Source of the DNA: Actinomycetota bacterium
GTDB taxonomy: Bacteria > Actinomycetota > Acidimicrobiia > Acidimicrobiales > Ilumatobacteraceae
Assembly (NCBI GenBank): GCA_016871355.1
Contig: VFZC01000013.1
Coordinates: 1 to 63,083 of the forward strand
Reading direction: 5' to 3'
Length of the DNA: 63,083 nt
In this document: positions 49,913 through 55,005 of the stretch, one piece after another
Numbering within the stretch: the stretch's first letter is position 1
Layout of the letters: every line of letters begins with the position of its first letter
Program-made: the position numbers and the translations under genes
Notes under the pieces: generated by a model
The model's database searches: none
Told to the model about the DNA's origin: nothing
What the model saw: the letters and a program-made list of their open reading frames with translations, nothing else

Positions 49913-50058
49913 GCCAACTCAGATGGTTTGCGGCTGGTCAGTCGGGTGAACTCTGACTGTCGCGGCGCTGAAGACGGAGGGAAAACGGTGTAGCGGCACA
50001 TTTCACGTCGTTCGGTTCGTTCCGTAGGGTGTGAGCGCGGGTGAAAGGTGGATCGATC

Positions 50059-51192
50059 ATGCGGTTGTTTCGACTGAGTGTCCTGGCAGTGATAGTTGTT
50101 GCGAGCTGCACCGTTGGTTCAGGTCCGTTGACAGCAGACGGGGGTCCGCCGTCTCCGAGCGGTCCTGGCACCGGCGTTCCGGGAGGAGCCGGTGCGCCGC
50201 CCTCCGGAGGTCCGGTATCGGGCGAGAATTCGAGCCCAGCCCCGTCTTCCCCATCATGTGCTGACACTTGTGGCTACGCAGTAGTGGACAACAGCGGCGT
50301 TGTACATGGTGTCATCGTCTGTCAGGAGGGGTGCTTCGGCGGAGTGATGCCGATCGACTACATGGGCTGTCCAGCGGGGTGTTCGCTGGTCCTTCAGTCG
50401 CCAGCAGACTCGACGGGAAACGTTGCTGGTGTCCACGGTCCGAATGTCGTGTACACGCCCACGGACAACACGTTCCGGCAAATCGGTGACGATGGAAACG
50501 AAACATGGACTCTCGTTGGTGGTCAACCACTCGACAGTGCCACTGTCACGCCTCCTCCAGTGCCCGACCCACCGCCGACGACACCAACAGACCCGACCAC
50601 GCCGACGAACCCAATCGAGCCAACTCTTCCGAGCGAACCGACTCCGACTGACGGTTACGTCGCACCGTCGGGTCAAACTTATGAAACCGTTTCACAGATG
50701 GTCGAGAGTGAGTCGATCATCGAGCTCACGACGACTGAAGTAAGCGTCGAGTTGCCCCCGCTTCCTAACGCTGGAGTTACTTACCTCGCTCTCTTCGATC
50801 CGAATGGCCCCCAATCCTTGTATGAAGTCGAACGAGGTGAACTCGACTCGGGTCTGGCGCCGATGTCAGTCCGGACGGTTCAGCGAAGTCGACACTCTCT
50901 TTCAATCGAACGGACGAAGTTTGGCTCTGCGAGCGGAAAACTCTTTGTTGTACTCGCGACTGATTATAAGTGGCTGGGTGTCGTTTCGACCGCGGTGCAA
51001 CCGCCGAAGAAGTACTCCAACTGCAAGGCGTTGCGGAAGGATTATCCGAGCGGAGTCAGTCGGGTCGCCGATGTGGTGGACAAGGGGAAGAAGACCACGT
51101 CGACGGGTCCGCTACCCGTCGTGAACCCCGATGTGTACGCACGCAACACGCGGTTGGACGCCGACAAGGACGGCATCGCCTGCGAGGTCTGA
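50059..51192 (+). CDS. Lipoprotein with C-terminal excalibur calcium-binding domain
   Basis: The protein has 377 residues from the ATG at 50059, which follows AAGGTGG. The signal MRLFRLSVLAVIVVASC ends in a lipobox. A Gly/Pro/Ser linker follows, then a Cys-rich segment (CADTCGYAVVD, CQEGCFGG, CPAGCSL), a Pro/Thr hinge, a beta-rich domain, and a terminal excalibur motif (YSNCKALRKDYPSG ... DADKDGIACEV). Excalibur domains bind Ca2+ and occur in secreted actinobacterial proteins. Codon use is less GC-rich than in neighbouring genes, with runs such as ACTTATGAAACCG and GATTATAAGTGG, suggesting a different origin or weak expression. The middle domains are unrecognised. Confidence 0.82.
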   Translation: MRLFRLSVLAVIVVASCTVGSGPLTADGGPPSPSGPGTGVPGGAGAPPSGGPVSGENSSPAPSSPSCADTCGYAVVDNSGVVHGVIVCQEGCFGGVMPIDYMGCPAGCSLVLQSPADSTGNVAGVHGPNVVYTPTDNTFRQIGDDGNETWTLVGGQPLDSATVTPPPVPDPPPTTPTDPTTPTNPIEPTLPSEPTPTDGYVAPSGQTYETVSQMVESESIIELTTTEVSVELPPLPNAGVTYLALFDPNGPQSLYEVERGELDSGLAPMSVRTVQRSRHSLSIERTKFGSASGKLFVVLATDYKWLGVVSTAVQPPKKYSNCKALRKDYPSGVSRVADVVDKGKKTTSTGPLPVVNPDVYARNTRLDADKDGIACEV

Positions 51193-51717
51193 TCAGGTTC
51201 GCTGGCGAGTGACGGTGGCAACGATTTCATCGAGTGCGGCGTCGGCGTAGGCGCGCATCTCGTCGTCGGTGCGATCTTGGATGGGGTGCGGAGTGAACAC
51301 CCGCGCCACCTCAGGAAAGCCGAGCGACTTCGACTGCGCATCGGCCGCCGACACGAACTCGGCTGACGCGACGAACACTGCGGGAACTCCGCGCTTCTCG
51401 ATATCCACGATGTCGTGCACACTGCACGACGTGCAACTGCCTCAATCGGCAAGCGCTTCGATCACCACTTGACACTGCGTGGCGATCTCGTGGCGCAGAT
51501 CGACCGGCGCGGGCTTGGTGAACGTGGGCTTCTTGAAGCGGCGCACATCGGCACCCATCTCCGAGAGCCGCTGCTCGAGGCGATCGAGGAACACGTCGCC
51601 GCGCGGCTTGGAGATGTCAAGCAGGCCGACTACCAATCCGTTGAGCGACTCGGGACGACCGACACGCTCCATGGTCTGCACGCGTCGTTCGTTGGTGGGG
51701 TCGAGCAGAGTCGTCAT
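51193..51717 (-). CDS. UGSC-family selenoprotein (in-frame UGA = Sec92)
   Basis: One 174-residue protein is encoded across an in-frame TGA at 51444-51442. The first part (MTTLLDPTNE ... GLLDISKPRGDVFLDRLEQ ... KPTFTKPAPVDLRHEI ... VVIEALAD) runs into U-G-S-C-T-S-C, then SVHDIVDIEKRGVPAVFVAS and HPIQDRTDDEMRAYADAALDEIV. Both halves match one family, named for its U-G-S-C motif, and no frame change is needed. A hairpin sits 11 bases after the TGA. Its ATG overlaps the upstream stop (ATGA). Function is unknown; the Sec-x-x-Cys/CxxC arrangement after a strand suggests thiol redox chemistry. Automatic callers split this gene into 51442-51717 and 51193-51420. It requires selA, selB, selC and selD elsewhere in the genome. 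Confidence 0.9.
51412..51444 (-). promoter_or_regulatory. UGA codon and SECIS-like hairpin
   Basis: The TGA is at 51444-51442 on the minus strand. GTCGTGCA (51430-51423) and TGCACGAC (51419-51412) form a perfect 8-bp stem with a GTG loop. The loop is about 19-20 bases from the UGA, within the range of bacterial SECIS elements, which lie in the coding region just after the Sec codon. Confidence 0.78.
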
Positions 51718-53153
51718 GTGGTCACCTCCCGTGTGACTGGCTGGCTGCCAACGTCACCGTTGGCCCACCCCCCAATGATGGCAGAGAACAGGCCAGCTCC
51801 TCCGCCCGCGTGAACCAGGAGCAGGCCGCCGGGCCGGAACTTCGGCAGCGTTGCGTCCTTCAGGTGAGCCGGAACACCCTCGGCGATGCCGTTGGCCCCG
51901 CGAATCAGCTCGGACCCCGGCAGTTGCAGTCGCGCGTGGATCTCGTCGAGCACCTTTTCGCGATTCCAGCCGGCCTCGGCGAACACGCGCGAGTGCTCGG
52001 GGCCCATCACGATGATCGCGTCGAACGCCAGCACCAACTTGGGGTTGTGCAGAGTGCGCAGGCAGGCCGCGAACGTGTTGCACAAACTCTCAGGGTCGCG
52101 CGCCTGTTGGTCGACCACGCAGCGCGGTCCTTCGCCTGGAAACACGGTGATCGCGTTGCGTCCCGGAGCCACGCCACGGCTCTCGGCCAACGACGTCCAG
52201 GGCGAACCCAACTCGTCCTCGGCGAAGCAGAACGAAATCTTGCCGGGATTGCCGTGCGTCGCTCGGTCGACCTCACCGGGACGACCACCACCCACGTTGC
52301 GAATGATCAACTGAACGGCGCGCCCGATCGTGAGGTTGGCGCGGTTGCCCTGACCGAACACGTTCATACCGCTGTTCATCCCGATCGCGCGCGTGCCCGG
52401 ACCGTTGCACACGATCACCGGACCGACCGGCATGGTGGTGGCGAGCACACCGTGGATGTTGAACGTGTCGTTGCACACCGCTTCCACGCCGGCGATCACC
52501 CACGGCAGGTACTCGGGCTTGCAACCGGCCATCACCGCGTTGATCGCGATCTTCTCCACGGTCACGTCGACGAGATCGGGCGGCACGACGGCCACCACGT
52601 CACTCGGAGCGCGAGTGGTTCCAGTGAGCATGCGGAGAACTCGTTCTTCGGTGGGCGGAACAACCGGCAATCCGTCGGTCCAACCGCGATCGAACATCGC
52701 TTCGAACTCGTCTTCGGCTGCGGCCGTCTCCACGCGCCGCGCCGACAGCACCGATCCGCCGAATCGAGCACGCAACGCATCGACCAAGTCGGGATCGACG
52801 CTCAGCGAGCCGCAACCCGGTCGAAACGCGGGCAGATCGAAGCCGAGATCGCTACGACCGGTGAGCGCGTGCCACTCGTCGCGCACCCAGCCGAACGTGC
52901 GCGCGACCTCGCGTCCGTGCTCCACCTTGATGACGGTCGGCACGGTTTCGATGTCGTTGTGCCAACTCACCGCCAGGTCGGCGTCGTGAATCGCGCTCAC
53001 ATCGGCCGGGAACGACGGATCGTCTTGTGTGTAGACCGTCACGGGAACCGTTCCGGCTTTCAGTTGCGAGATTACCGGCACCACCAGCCGACACGTCTCG
53101 CATTCGTGCTTCACCACGATCACCAAACCATCGGGGAGAGTGGGTGTCGACAC
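51714..53153 (-). CDS. Thioredoxin-like two-domain protein, partner of the UGSC selenoprotein
   Basis: This protein has 479 residues from the GTG at 53153. Residues about 1-100 are thioredoxin-like with C18-E-T-C21 (VVKHECETCRLVVPVISQL) and a cis-Pro region (ETVPTVIKVEHGREV). The second domain (about 140-479) begins with DRGWTDGLPVVPPTEERVLRML and contains MAGCKPEYLPWVIAGVEAVC, NGPGTRAIGMNSGMNVFGQG and LLLVHAGGGAGLFSAIIGGW; I do not know its fold or reaction. It starts 2 bp after the hydrolase stop and its own stop overlaps the selenoprotein start. The three genes therefore form one operon, and the CxxC domain may reduce the selenoprotein (inference). Confidence 0.82.
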   Translation of the reverse strand: MSTPTLPDGLVIVVKHECETCRLVVPVISQLKAGTVPVTVYTQDDPSFPADVSAIHDADLAVSWHNDIETVPTVIKVEHGREVARTFGWVRDEWHALTGRSDLGFDLPAFRPGCGSLSVDPDLVDALRARFGGSVLSARRVETAAAEDEFEAMFDRGWTDGLPVVPPTEERVLRMLTGTTRAPSDVVAVVPPDLVDVTVEKIAINAVMAGCKPEYLPWVIAGVEAVCNDTFNIHGVLATTMPVGPVIVCNGPGTRAIGMNSGMNVFGQGNRANLTIGRAVQLIIRNVGGGRPGEVDRATHGNPGKISFCFAEDELGSPWTSLAESRGVAPGRNAITVFPGEGPRCVVDQQARDPESLCNTFAACLRTLHNPKLVLAFDAIIVMGPEHSRVFAEAGWNREKVLDEIHARLQLPGSELIRGANGIAEGVPAHLKDATLPKFRPGGLLLVHAGGGAGLFSAIIGGWANGDVGSQPVTREVTT

Positions 53154-53155
53154 GA

Positions 53156-54046
53156 TCAGGCCTTCAGGAAGTCGAGGATGATCTGGTTGACCGCGTCGGG
53201 TCGTTCGAGATGCAAGAAGTGACCGGCACCATCGACGATCTCCATGCGCGCGTGCGCGGGCAGTTCGCCGCGAGCGGATTCGGCCACTTCGACTCCCATG
53301 CATCCGTCGGTACGGCCGTGCAGATACAGATACGACTGCGGCGGAATGGCACTGCCCTTCTCTTGCATCGACTGCAGAGCCGGATCGTTGTAACCGGCGC
53401 CGAGCGTCGCGCGATAGAAGCCGAGCGCGGCTTGCAAGTTGGCCGCGTCGCGCAGACTCGGCTTCAGCAGAGCGAGGTCTTCGCGCGCGTCGTAACCCGG
53501 CGACCAATCGGCCCACAGCATGTCGATGAACGCGAGATCGTTGGCGCCCACCACGAGATCGGAGAGCGGATGCTGGAAGAAGAACATGTACCAACTGCGT
53601 TTGATCTGTGCGAGGTTGCCGATGAACGCTGCACCGACCGCGTTGCCCGGTGGAACGGCCATCGATACGACCTTGCGCCACGCATCGGGTGCGTGACTCG
53701 CGGCGATGTGCGTGATGGGTGCGCCCCAGTCGTGGCCGATGATCACCGCGTCGGCACCACCACCGAGTGAGGCACGCAGCTCGAGCACGTCGAGGGCCGA
53801 GGCCGCGGTCTGGAAGCGTCCGTCGGCGGGCACGCCGGACGGGGCGTACCCGCGCAAGAACGGGGCTACCGCTCGGTAACCAGCGTCGGTGAGACGGGGG
53901 AGGAGGTGGCGCCAGGTGTGGGCCGAATCGGGGAAGCCGTGCACGCACACGGCGAGCGGGCCGCCGTTGTCGAGGCCGGCTGCCAGGTACGACAGGTCGA
54001 AGCCGTTGACCGACACGCTGTGTCGAGTGATTCCCCCGTGACTCAT
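53156..54046 (-). CDS. Alpha/beta hydrolase, epoxide hydrolase/dehalogenase-like
   Basis: This is a 296-residue alpha/beta hydrolase. The oxyanion region is VCVHGFPDSAHTW. The nucleophile elbow GHDWGAP has Asp as nucleophile, which is typical of epoxide hydrolases and haloalkane or haloacetate dehalogenases. The terminal His is in DGAGHFLHLERP, and the cap domain contains WYMFFFQHPLSD. It is the first gene of the selenoprotein operon, 2 bp before the thioredoxin-like gene. The ATG at 54046 is preferred to the GTG at 54067. The substrate is unknown; an epoxide or organohalide would fit the Asp nucleophile. Confidence 0.86.
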   Translation of the reverse strand: MSHGGITRHSVSVNGFDLSYLAAGLDNGGPLAVCVHGFPDSAHTWRHLLPRLTDAGYRAVAPFLRGYAPSGVPADGRFQTAASALDVLELRASLGGGADAVIIGHDWGAPITHIAASHAPDAWRKVVSMAVPPGNAVGAAFIGNLAQIKRSWYMFFFQHPLSDLVVGANDLAFIDMLWADWSPGYDAREDLALLKPSLRDAANLQAALGFYRATLGAGYNDPALQSMQEKGSAIPPQSYLYLHGRTDGCMGVEVAESARGELPAHARMEIVDGAGHFLHLERPDAVNQIILDFLKA

Positions 54047-54192
54047 GGGCGAACCGTACTTCGCCACAGGCGGGGTGGCCTACCCGTCCTGCGACGAAGG
54101 TCACCGGACTCGCATGTTCACAAGTGATGGTCCACTGACTTAGCGTTCGTTCCATCGGGGGGAATCAGGGACTTCAGGTCACGTTCTATGGC

Positions 54193-55005
54193 GTGCGTGG
54201 ATCGACTCCATGCCATGGCGATGACACGCGGCGTTACGGCGGAAACACGTCGTGCGTTGGTCTCGACGCACCCGGAGAAGATCCGCTCGTGTTCGATCTC
54301 GGTACTGGTCTTCGTTACTCGTGCGGTCAGTCCGGTGTGCCTTCGCCGTTCCGTGGTGCTTGCTTGCTGACGCACATGCACTGGGATCACATCCAGGGTC
54401 TGCCGTTCTTCATGCCCACGTTGCGTGATGGCGCGCACTTCGACATCTACGCGCCCACACAGGACGACGGACGCACGGTGGCCGAAGTGTTCGACGCGAT
54501 CATTCGTCCGCCCATGTTCCCGATCTCGTTGCGCGAACTGCCGGGCACGTTCAATTTCCATGACGTGGCCGACGACGACTTCATGGTGGGTGGGTATCAG
54601 GTGCGCAGCCGCTTGGTTCCGCACATCGGCAACACACTCGGCTTTCGTGTCACGTGGGGCGGTAAGACGGTCGTGTACTTGTCCGATCATCAAATGCCGC
54701 TTGACGGATCGATGGGTCTCGCCGATGGCGCGCGCGAACTGTGCGAAGGAGCCGATCTGCTCATTCACGATGCGCAGTACACGCCGCACGAGTTTGTGGA
54801 GAAGAACAACTGGGGTCACTGCACGGTCGATTACGCCTTGTGGGTGGCGGCCGAATGTGGTGTGAAGACGCTCGCGTTGTTCCATCACGATCCCGCGCGT
54901 TGTGACGACGAGGTCGACCAGTTGCTTGAGGCGGCCGCGTGCGAGGGTGACAAGCGCGGCGTGCAGGTGTTCGCGGCCCACGAGGGCCTCACCGTCACCG
55001 TCTAA
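54193..55005 (+). CDS. MBL-fold metallohydrolase
   Basis: This 270-residue metallo-beta-lactamase-fold protein has the zinc motif THMHWDHIQG, then PHIGNTLGFRV, YLSDH and a late LFHHDP. It opens VRGSTPCHGDDTRRYGGNTSC, typical of phosphodiesterase-like members (PhnP/cyclic-nucleotide type). Relatives normally begin one strand earlier, about 7 residues upstream (LQVTFYG is encoded there). Between the upstream in-frame TGA (54136) and 54193 there is no ATG, GTG or TTG. A GGGGGGA ribosome site at 54157-54163 points to initiation near the CTT at 54172. The real start may be non-canonical. Confidence 0.85.
   Translation: MRGSTPCHGDDTRRYGGNTSCVGLDAPGEDPLVFDLGTGLRYSCGQSGVPSPFRGACLLTHMHWDHIQGLPFFMPTLRDGAHFDIYAPTQDDGRTVAEVFDAIIRPPMFPISLRELPGTFNFHDVADDDFMVGGYQVRSRLVPHIGNTLGFRVTWGGKTVVYLSDHQMPLDGSMGLADGARELCEGADLLIHDAQYTPHEFVEKNNWGHCTVDYALWVAAECGVKTLALFHHDPARCDDEVDQLLEAAACEGDKRGVQVFAAHEGLTVTV

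What the first reader, a model, noticed from the sequence alone, without database searches (positions are those of the whole stretch)
51193..51717. Selenoprotein of the UGSC family with an in-frame UGA and SECIS-like hairpin
Two adjacent short frames on the minus strand are one gene. Reading the TGA at 51444-51442 as Sec gives an uninterrupted protein with the diagnostic U-G-S-C-T-S-C motif. Both halves belong to the same family, and a perfect 8-bp stem with a GTG loop lies about 20 bases after the UGA. The organism must therefore use selenocysteine, and standard annotation will break the gene in two. The protein's function is unknown.
Basis: partly seen in the sequence, partly recalled or inferred. 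Interest (0 to 1): 0.82.

Follow-up and report, generated by a model that had tools for sequence, protein, structure and literature searches.

The report
Selenoprotein with a thioredoxin-bearing partner
An actinobacterium reads one stop codon as the rare amino acid selenocysteine to make a small protein of a known but unexplained family, and its neighbours suggest it is the reactive part of a two-protein reducing enzyme distantly related to glycine reductase.

Summary
Confirmed. The minus-strand gene 51193-51717 is a selenoprotein gene of the known UGSC family, read through TGA 51444-51442 (174 aa). Both halves match the family separately. The genome has tRNA-Sec, SelA, SelB and SelD. TGA stands at this site in 110 of 111 homologous copies, and the hairpin 51412-51430 shows compensatory changes. 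Of 7 related genomes with UGSC but no real SelA, 5 carry no TGA in it; the other 2 are 83-84% complete. The family is in print, so this is a new member of a known kind. What may be new: UGSC is a remote relative of the selenocysteine domain of GrdB/PrdB (hhalign 92-93%), with a predicted Rossmann-like fold, not the thioredoxin fold proposed earlier; and a partner gene, whose core has no Pfam family, lies beside it in 102 of 110 loci and co-occurs in 50 of 54 genomes holding either. Here the partner carries a thioredoxin-like domain. Best reading: the Sec subunit of a thioredoxin-fed two-subunit reductase. Substrate unknown; partner fold unresolved.

The parts
51193..51717 (-). UGSC-family selenoprotein gene, 174 aa with Sec at residue 92; includes stop
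51442..51444 (-). in-frame TGA read as selenocysteine (Sec92 of D-U-G-S-C-T-S-C)
   Evidence: TGA in 110 of 111 homologous copies, TGC in one
51412..51430 (-). SECIS-like hairpin inside the coding sequence: 8-bp stem (51430-51423 with 51419-51412), loop GTG 51422-51420
   Evidence: the one Cys copy among the 111 (L032) keeps only 5 of 8 pairs, and one TGA copy (second copy in L034) only 4
51714..53153 (-). partner gene ('PartC'), 479 aa from GTG 53153-53151 (start by inspection); its stop overlaps the UGSC start by 4 nt (ATGA 51717-51714)
   Evidence: same-strand partner in 102 of 110 loci
52860..53129 (-). thioredoxin-like N-terminal domain of the partner, active-site-like CETC at 53102-53091
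   Evidence: profile and Foldseek matches to thioredoxins
51717..52730 (-). core domain of the partner, no Pfam match; invariant Cys in the MAGCxP motif
53156..54067 (-). alpha/beta hydrolase gene two bases upstream of the partner; probable operon mate, present only in part of the relatives

Best explanation
The gene makes a true selenoprotein: SelB, guided by the hairpin just after the UGA, delivers Sec-tRNA(UCA) and residue 92 becomes selenocysteine (genetics shown by comparison, incorporation itself inferred). The protein is a small Rossmann-like domain with the selenol at the start of a helix, and its Sec aligns with that of the C-terminal domain of glycine reductase selenoprotein B and proline reductase PrdB. 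It works with the partner protein encoded directly before it. Inferred mechanism: the selenolate attacks a carbon-heteroatom or similar bond of a small organic substrate held with the partner's core domain; Cys95 (and in many members Cys98) resolves the adduct as a selenenylsulfide; the thioredoxin domain fused to the partner (CETC) returns it to the selenol, fed by thioredoxin reductase. Paralogues near different catabolic genes suggest one module per substrate.
For: Recoding: family match of both halves; selA/B/C/D in the genome; TGA in 110 of 111 copies; covarying hairpin; tRNA-Sec at E below 1e-9 in 135 of 150 UGSC genomes against 41 of 146 without; at the Rfam cut-off 204 of 296 genomes pass, which makes it 137 of 150 against 67 of 146. 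Of the 15 exceptions, 8 have SelA (one partial) and 23 of 23 copies with TGA; 5 lack a real SelA and 7 of 7 copies have no stop; 2 (83-84% complete) have 3 TGA copies without SelA. GrdB relation: hhalign 91.6/93.3% with Sec aligned to Sec, 72% with the motif masked, against at most 4.7% in 20 column shuffles and 1.0% in 8 real unrelated families. Fold: AlphaFold2 pLDDT 94.7, alternating strands and helices with Sec92 before helix 93-108. Partner: 102 of 110 loci, 98 of these within 91 nt, 33 with the 4-nt overlap; 50 genomes have both, 2 only partner, 2 only UGSC, 64 neither; adjacent in 6 of 6 plasmid records opened (of 8 hits), haloarchaea included. Thioredoxin: fused here; trxB-trxA-partner-UGSC in Arthrobacter.
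Against: No biochemistry exists here and no substrate is known. The GrdB relation is remote: Pfam PF07355 does not hit this protein, and against GrdB alone or PrdB-like alone the probability is only 21% or 37%. Nearest solved folds are generic and weak. The thioredoxin domain is missing from the divergent partners, and in none of 20 regions around UGSC genes of that kind did I find a trxA or trxB gene, so a dedicated thioredoxin is not general. Two loci with upstream sequence (L019, L111) have no partner nearby. The partner's core has no convincing fold relative. A complex of the two proteins was not modelled.
Confidence: 0.6

Rival explanations
1. A thioredoxin-fold thiol-disulfide oxidoreductase, as suggested in the GOS selenoproteome paper; the partner is its protein substrate or reductant.
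For: UxxC motif; [quoted passage not shown]
Against: Confident model has five strands alternating with helices, Sec after the third strand; no thioredoxin among the 50 Foldseek rows shown of 1705 matches; profile relation to GrdB.
Confidence: 0.08
2. A selenoprotein that detoxifies or reduces peroxides or electrophiles rather than a catabolic reductase; the partner binds the oxidant.
For: Thioredoxin-like domain in the partner; many Sec proteins are peroxidases (general knowledge); MBL-fold-like and flavin reductase-like genes (labels by eye) are neighbours in relatives.
Against: Up to ten copies in one genome and neighbours that include acyl-CoA and acid catabolism genes fit substrate-specific enzymes better; relation to GrdB/PrdB.
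Confidence: 0.2
3. The UGSC-partner pair is a lyase or hydrolase in which Sec acts as nucleophile without net reduction; the partner core is related to class I fumarase.
For: Best Foldseek hits of the partner are class I fumarases (E 9e-4); the only piece hhalign aligns is MAGCxPE with the AACPPYH cysteine motif.
Against: TM-score 0.22 and rmsd 17; hhalign probability 0.3%, score 19.0 against at most 17.7 in 12 shuffles; only one invariant Cys, too few for the three-Cys iron-sulfur site of fumarase (recalled); the thioredoxin fusion argues for redox turnover.
Confidence: 0.1
4. Not a selenoprotein: ordinary stop, sequencing error or pseudogene.
For: Draft genome, 86% complete.
Against: TGA at the same site in 110 of 111 copies from many assemblies, conserved protein beyond it, covarying hairpin, Sec machinery.
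Confidence: 0.01

Closest known systems
UGSC-containing selenoprotein family (NCBIfam NF041046, Pfam PF24696)
   Same: Scores above both curated cut-offs; UGSC motif; Sec at the family position
   Different: Nothing of substance; it is an ordinary member. The partner gene is not mentioned in the published passages seen here
Glycine reductase selenoprotein B (GrdB) and proline reductase PrdB, C-terminal Sec domain (Pfam PF07355)
   Same: Sec aligns with Sec; GrdB here reads U-G-T-G-T-R-C, UGSC reads U-G-S-C-T-S-C, most PrdB-like proteins U-x-x-C; thioredoxin takes part in glycine reductase (PMC13188914 passage)
   Different: Below PF07355 detection; the adjacent partner is not GrdE
GrdB/GrdE-like fluoroacetate reductase FarB/FarE of Synergistota (PMC10838667, abstract and passages)
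   Same: Suggests that GrdB-type selenoproteins can take other substrates
   Different: True GrdB/GrdE relatives in anaerobes
UGSC/Unknown_1 fusion (PMC2398784, passages)
   Same: UGSC joined to a conserved unknown domain; Unknown_1 might be the partner described here
   Different: Supplement not readable, so identity not tested

Membership tests
UGSC family (PF24696 / NF041046) | score above curated cut-off | tested here: met
   163 bits against 25; 170 bits against 125
UGSC family (PF24696 / NF041046) | U/C-G-S-C motif | tested here: met
   residues 92-95; Sec/Cys92, G93 and C95 invariant in 43 members, S94 nearly so
Bacterial selenoprotein | selA, selB, selC, selD in the genome | tested here: met
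   403, 292, 65 and 324 bits, all over cut-off
Bacterial selenoprotein | SECIS hairpin directly after UGA, conserved across relatives | tested here: met
   no dedicated bacterial SECIS predictor was run; no Rfam match in the window at gathering score
Bacterial selenoprotein | Sec physically present | not testable with these tools
   needs 75Se labelling or mass spectrometry
GrdB (PF07355) | score above Pfam cut-off | tested here: not met
   no PF07355 match at E up to 1; NCBIfam GrdB-type models only E 0.0015-0.05
GrdB (PF07355) | common ancestry of the Sec domain | tested here: inconclusive
   hhalign 91.6-93.3% with the pooled profile, controls at most 4.7%, but 21% and 37% with each subfamily alone; probable, remote
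GrdB (PF07355) | GrdE partner | tested here: not met
   adjacent partner core against GrdE 0.8%; the rest of the genome was not searched for GrdE
Thioredoxin fold (for UGSC itself) | thioredoxin topology | tested here: not met
   predicted model and the Foldseek rows shown; no experimental structure
Thioredoxin (partner N-terminus) | CxxC active site and thioredoxin fold | tested here: met
   CETC; model hits thioredoxins at rmsd mostly 2.5-6; sequence profile only weak, best E 0.0039 and 1.1e-4
Class I fumarase (partner core) | profile similarity | tested here: not met
   hhalign 0.3%

The most novel reading that the evidence does not exclude
UGSC plus the undescribed partner family is a separate class of selenoenzyme: a two-protein, thioredoxin-fed reductase that descends from the same Sec domain as glycine and proline reductase but has exchanged the GrdE/PrdA-type subunit for a new one. 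It spread into presumably aerobic bacteria and, with Cys in place of Sec, into haloarchaea, with up to ten substrate-specific copies per genome. A long-known orphan selenoprotein family would thus be the catalytic half of a widespread reductive-catabolism system.
Probability: 0.5. Interest if true: 0.75.

Novelty: new member of a known kind. Interest (0 to 1): 0.42.

Why it matters
[quoted passage not shown] A nearly constant partner, a thioredoxin fusion and a remote tie to glycine/proline reductase turn it into a testable enzyme hypothesis. Among related genomes the Sec/Cys state of the gene also follows the presence or loss of the Sec machinery.

Tried and rejected
Separate thioredoxin genes beside partners that lack the fused domain: found in none of 20 regions (one weak TrxA match in 20 control regions). 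Partner as GrdE: 0.8%; as class I fumarase: 0.3% with one suggestive cysteine motif. Energy of the single hairpin: not significant. Solved relatives by sequence: for UGSC and GrdB nothing below E 0.6, for the partner only thioredoxins. The stretch after the TGA of the genome's GrdB/PrdB-like gene is not unusual in energy either. UGSC/GrdB homology with each subfamily alone is weak. One TGA-bearing copy (second copy in L034, at a contig end) keeps only 4 of 8 pairs.

Selections: L019-L048 are the best matches of 30 genomes and L049-L128 the best 80 of 334, so close relatives dominate and near-duplicate assemblies occur. In one search I left out the one Cys copy and identical or too short stretches (41 of 111 used). 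PF07355 relatives: 25 sequences, from 24 of the 25 loci (L140 gave none) plus L160; the further matches listed were not examined. In some searches the handle lists were typed. The E 1e-9 line was drawn by me after seeing the values. One search takes the 118 genomes to be G000-G117, because every handle listed there is 114 or lower and 46 are unlisted; one partner-only genome (G108, E 9e-4) and one UGSC-only genome (G018, E 9e-7) rest on weak matches.

Full report
WHAT IS THERE. On the minus strand, ATG 51717 opens a frame that meets TGA at 51444-51442 and, read through, runs to 51193: 174 residues. Both sides of the TGA match the UGSC family on their own and score 163 bits (Pfam) and 170 bits (NCBIfam) together, above both curated cut-offs. 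Sec is residue 92 in D-U-G-S-C-T-S-C.

THE CELL CAN DO IT. The window's genome (2.2 Mb, 86% complete) has tRNA-Sec over the Rfam cut-off (65 bits; UCA anticodon by eye in the alignment), SelB and SelA side by side on contig C3 and SelD. Closest named relatives are Acidimicrobiales/Ilumatobacteraceae assemblies, up to 98% identical in this protein.

COMPARATIVE PROOF. In 110 loci the codon at the Sec site is TGA in 110 of 111 copies and TGC in one. The hairpin after it has all 8 pairs in 96 of 111 copies, 7 in 12, 6 in 1; the one Cys copy keeps 5, one TGA copy keeps 4. In 41 distinct stretches four of eight pairs show changes on both sides. The pair at columns 18/30 joins two third-codon positions and is GC, AU or GU in all 41. 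The stem also codes for conserved residues, so conservation alone would not be enough; covariation is. The energy of the single sequence is not unusual.

SEC FOLLOWS THE MACHINERY. UGSC occurs in 150 of 298 genomes of the order; four of the rows listed carry no stop, the others one TGA (more rows were not listed). tRNA-Sec with E below 1e-9 is in 135 of the 150 and in 41 of 146 others. That line is mine; at the Rfam cut-off 204 of 296 genomes pass, and with the two exceptions that pass it the contrast is 137 of 150 against 67 of 146. I re-examined all 15 exceptions. Eight have SelA, one of them a partial, below-cut-off match (G070), and all 23 of their UGSC copies carry TGA. Five have no real SelA (none, or a 20-bit or weaker match), and all 7 copies lack a stop; one of the five, G255, has a 50-bit tRNA-Sec match. 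Two (G001, G170; 83-84% complete, over 500 contigs) have 3 TGA copies and no SelA found.

THE PARTNER. Directly upstream, overlapping by 4 nt (ATGA), lies a 479-residue protein, 51714-53153, start GTG by inspection. Its first 100 residues are a thioredoxin-like domain with CETC. Its core of about 338 residues has no Pfam family in any of 21 members; in NCBIfam the whole protein drew thioredoxin-type models and one stray match in one of 33 members. PHROGs and PADLOC were not searched. The core lies on the same strand before UGSC in 102 of 110 loci: 98 within 91 nt, 33 with the same overlap, 4 about 0.9 kb away. Of the 8 loci without a match, three have one by a profile or in a longer region (L027, L028, L041), three end within 320 bases upstream (L117, L121, L126), and two truly lack it in the sequence held (L019, L111). 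Longer regions around 20 UGSC genes of divergent type contain it in 19, control regions in 0 of 20. Among 118 genomes, 50 have both, 2 only the partner, 2 only UGSC. In 6 plasmid records opened of 8 hits it is adjacent in all 6: before UGSC in Arthrobacter, Embleya and Variovorax, after it in Natrinema and Acidovorax, on both sides in Halalkalicoccus. There UGSC carries Cys in 5 and TGA in one (Acidovorax). In Arthrobacter the order is trxB-trxA-partner-UGSC, and in Variovorax trxB lies upstream of the partner with two genes between. The thioredoxin fusion belongs to the close-relative group; divergent partners lack it and several end in a C-terminal CVDC-like tail.

REMOTE HOMOLOGY AND FOLD. 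NCBIfam gave weak GrdB-type matches around the Sec. Acidimicrobiales genomes hold true GrdB genes and stand-alone PrdB-like proteins, all 25 examined with one in-frame TGA. A profile of 54 UGSC proteins aligns with the profile of those 25 at 91.6% (93.3% with roles exchanged), Sec on Sec; with the UGSC motif masked 72%; 20 shuffled profiles give at most 4.7% and 8 unrelated families at most 1.0%. Against GrdB alone 21%, PrdB-like alone 37%, so the tie is probable, not proven. The AlphaFold2 model (pLDDT 94.7) alternates strands and helices with Sec at the start of a helix after the third strand; the Foldseek rows shown are generic alpha/beta relatives. This contradicts the older guess of a thioredoxin fold (PMC2398784, passage).

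HOW IT MOST LIKELY WORKS. Shown by comparison: recoding, hairpin, partner linkage. Supported: GrdB-type Sec domain, thioredoxin-like domain in the partner. Inferred: complex formation, nucleophilic selenolate chemistry on a small substrate bound with the partner, resolution by Cys95, re-reduction by the fused thioredoxin. Of 20 neighbour proteins scanned around six paralogues, many are catabolic: acyl-CoA dehydrogenase, enoyl-CoA hydratase, short-chain dehydrogenase, luciferase-like oxidoreductase, amidohydrolase, HpcH aldolase; others are not (MFS transporters, an iron-sulfur carrier, dihydrouridine synthase) and four had no family. CoA transferases and transporters lie near the plasmid copies. 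I did not measure enrichment.

LITERATURE. UGSC is listed among prokaryotic selenoproteins whose functions remain largely uncharacterized (PMC13188914, passages), known from the GOS metagenome (PMC2398784, passages) and from Geodermatophilaceae (PMC5330540, passage). Searches for UGSC with selenoprotein, the family accessions, and UGSC with glycine reductase listed 8, 1 and 5 papers. I saw passages of 5 of the 8 (PMC13188914, PMC2398784, PMC9312934, PMC5330540, PMC5029168); they state no GrdB relation and no partner gene, but I read none whole, and the library holds only open-licence papers. 'Unknown_1' of PMC2398784 may be the partner; its supplement could not be read.

VERDICT. The finding is right. 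The gene is an ordinary member of a known family; the partner and the GrdB tie make the family's function testable.

Noticed in passing
L160:3059-4213 (+), window's genome contig C5: A second likely selenoprotein gene: 384-residue PrdB/GrdB-C-like protein with TPVUPLCTRT, broken by an in-frame TGA.
   Followed up: partly
L129-L139: GrdB with UGTGTRC in 11 Acidimicrobiales loci, with GrdE-like stretches (12 found among the PF07355 loci): glycine-reductase-type genes in an order not usually linked to Stickland fermentation.
   Followed up: partly
partner core, window 51717-52730: Best Foldseek hits of the partner model are class I fumarases over about 350 columns, but with TM 0.22; the MAGCxPE motif is the only stretch hhalign aligns with fumarase, at AACPPYH.
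   Followed up: partly
L029, L031, L033, L035, L038, L042: Partners without a thioredoxin domain end in a C-terminal C-x-x-C tail such as ACVDC, perhaps a substitute redox tail.
   Followed up: no
L024, L025, L030: UGSC proteins of 266-274 residues with an extra C-terminal stretch of about 95 residues.
   Followed up: no
window 50041-51192 (+): Secreted-looking Pro-rich protein ending in an excalibur-like DADKDGIACE motif (name recalled); its stop codon abuts the UGSC stop codon tail to tail.
   Followed up: no
window about 54193-55005 (+): Metallo-beta-lactamase-like gene (label by eye), divergent from the operon in many relatives; the alpha/beta hydrolase between it and the partner is present only in some.
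   Followed up: partly
L155:8640-9158 (Acidovorax sp. T1 plasmid p2-T1): TGA-containing UGSC gene annotated as a short 'hypothetical protein' that ends at the TGA; the partner after it has no listed gene.
   Followed up: yes
L154 and L157: UGSC-partner pairs within 4 kb of a gene annotated phosphosulfolactate synthase in a haloarchaeon and in Arthrobacter, a possible substrate clue.
   Followed up: no
L058, L062, L108, L111, L117, L121: Assembly titles name Bifidobacterium breve or Ferrithrix thermotolerans although this protein is 67-84% identical to the window's, as in Ilumatobacteraceae assemblies; perhaps mislabelled assemblies.
   Followed up: no
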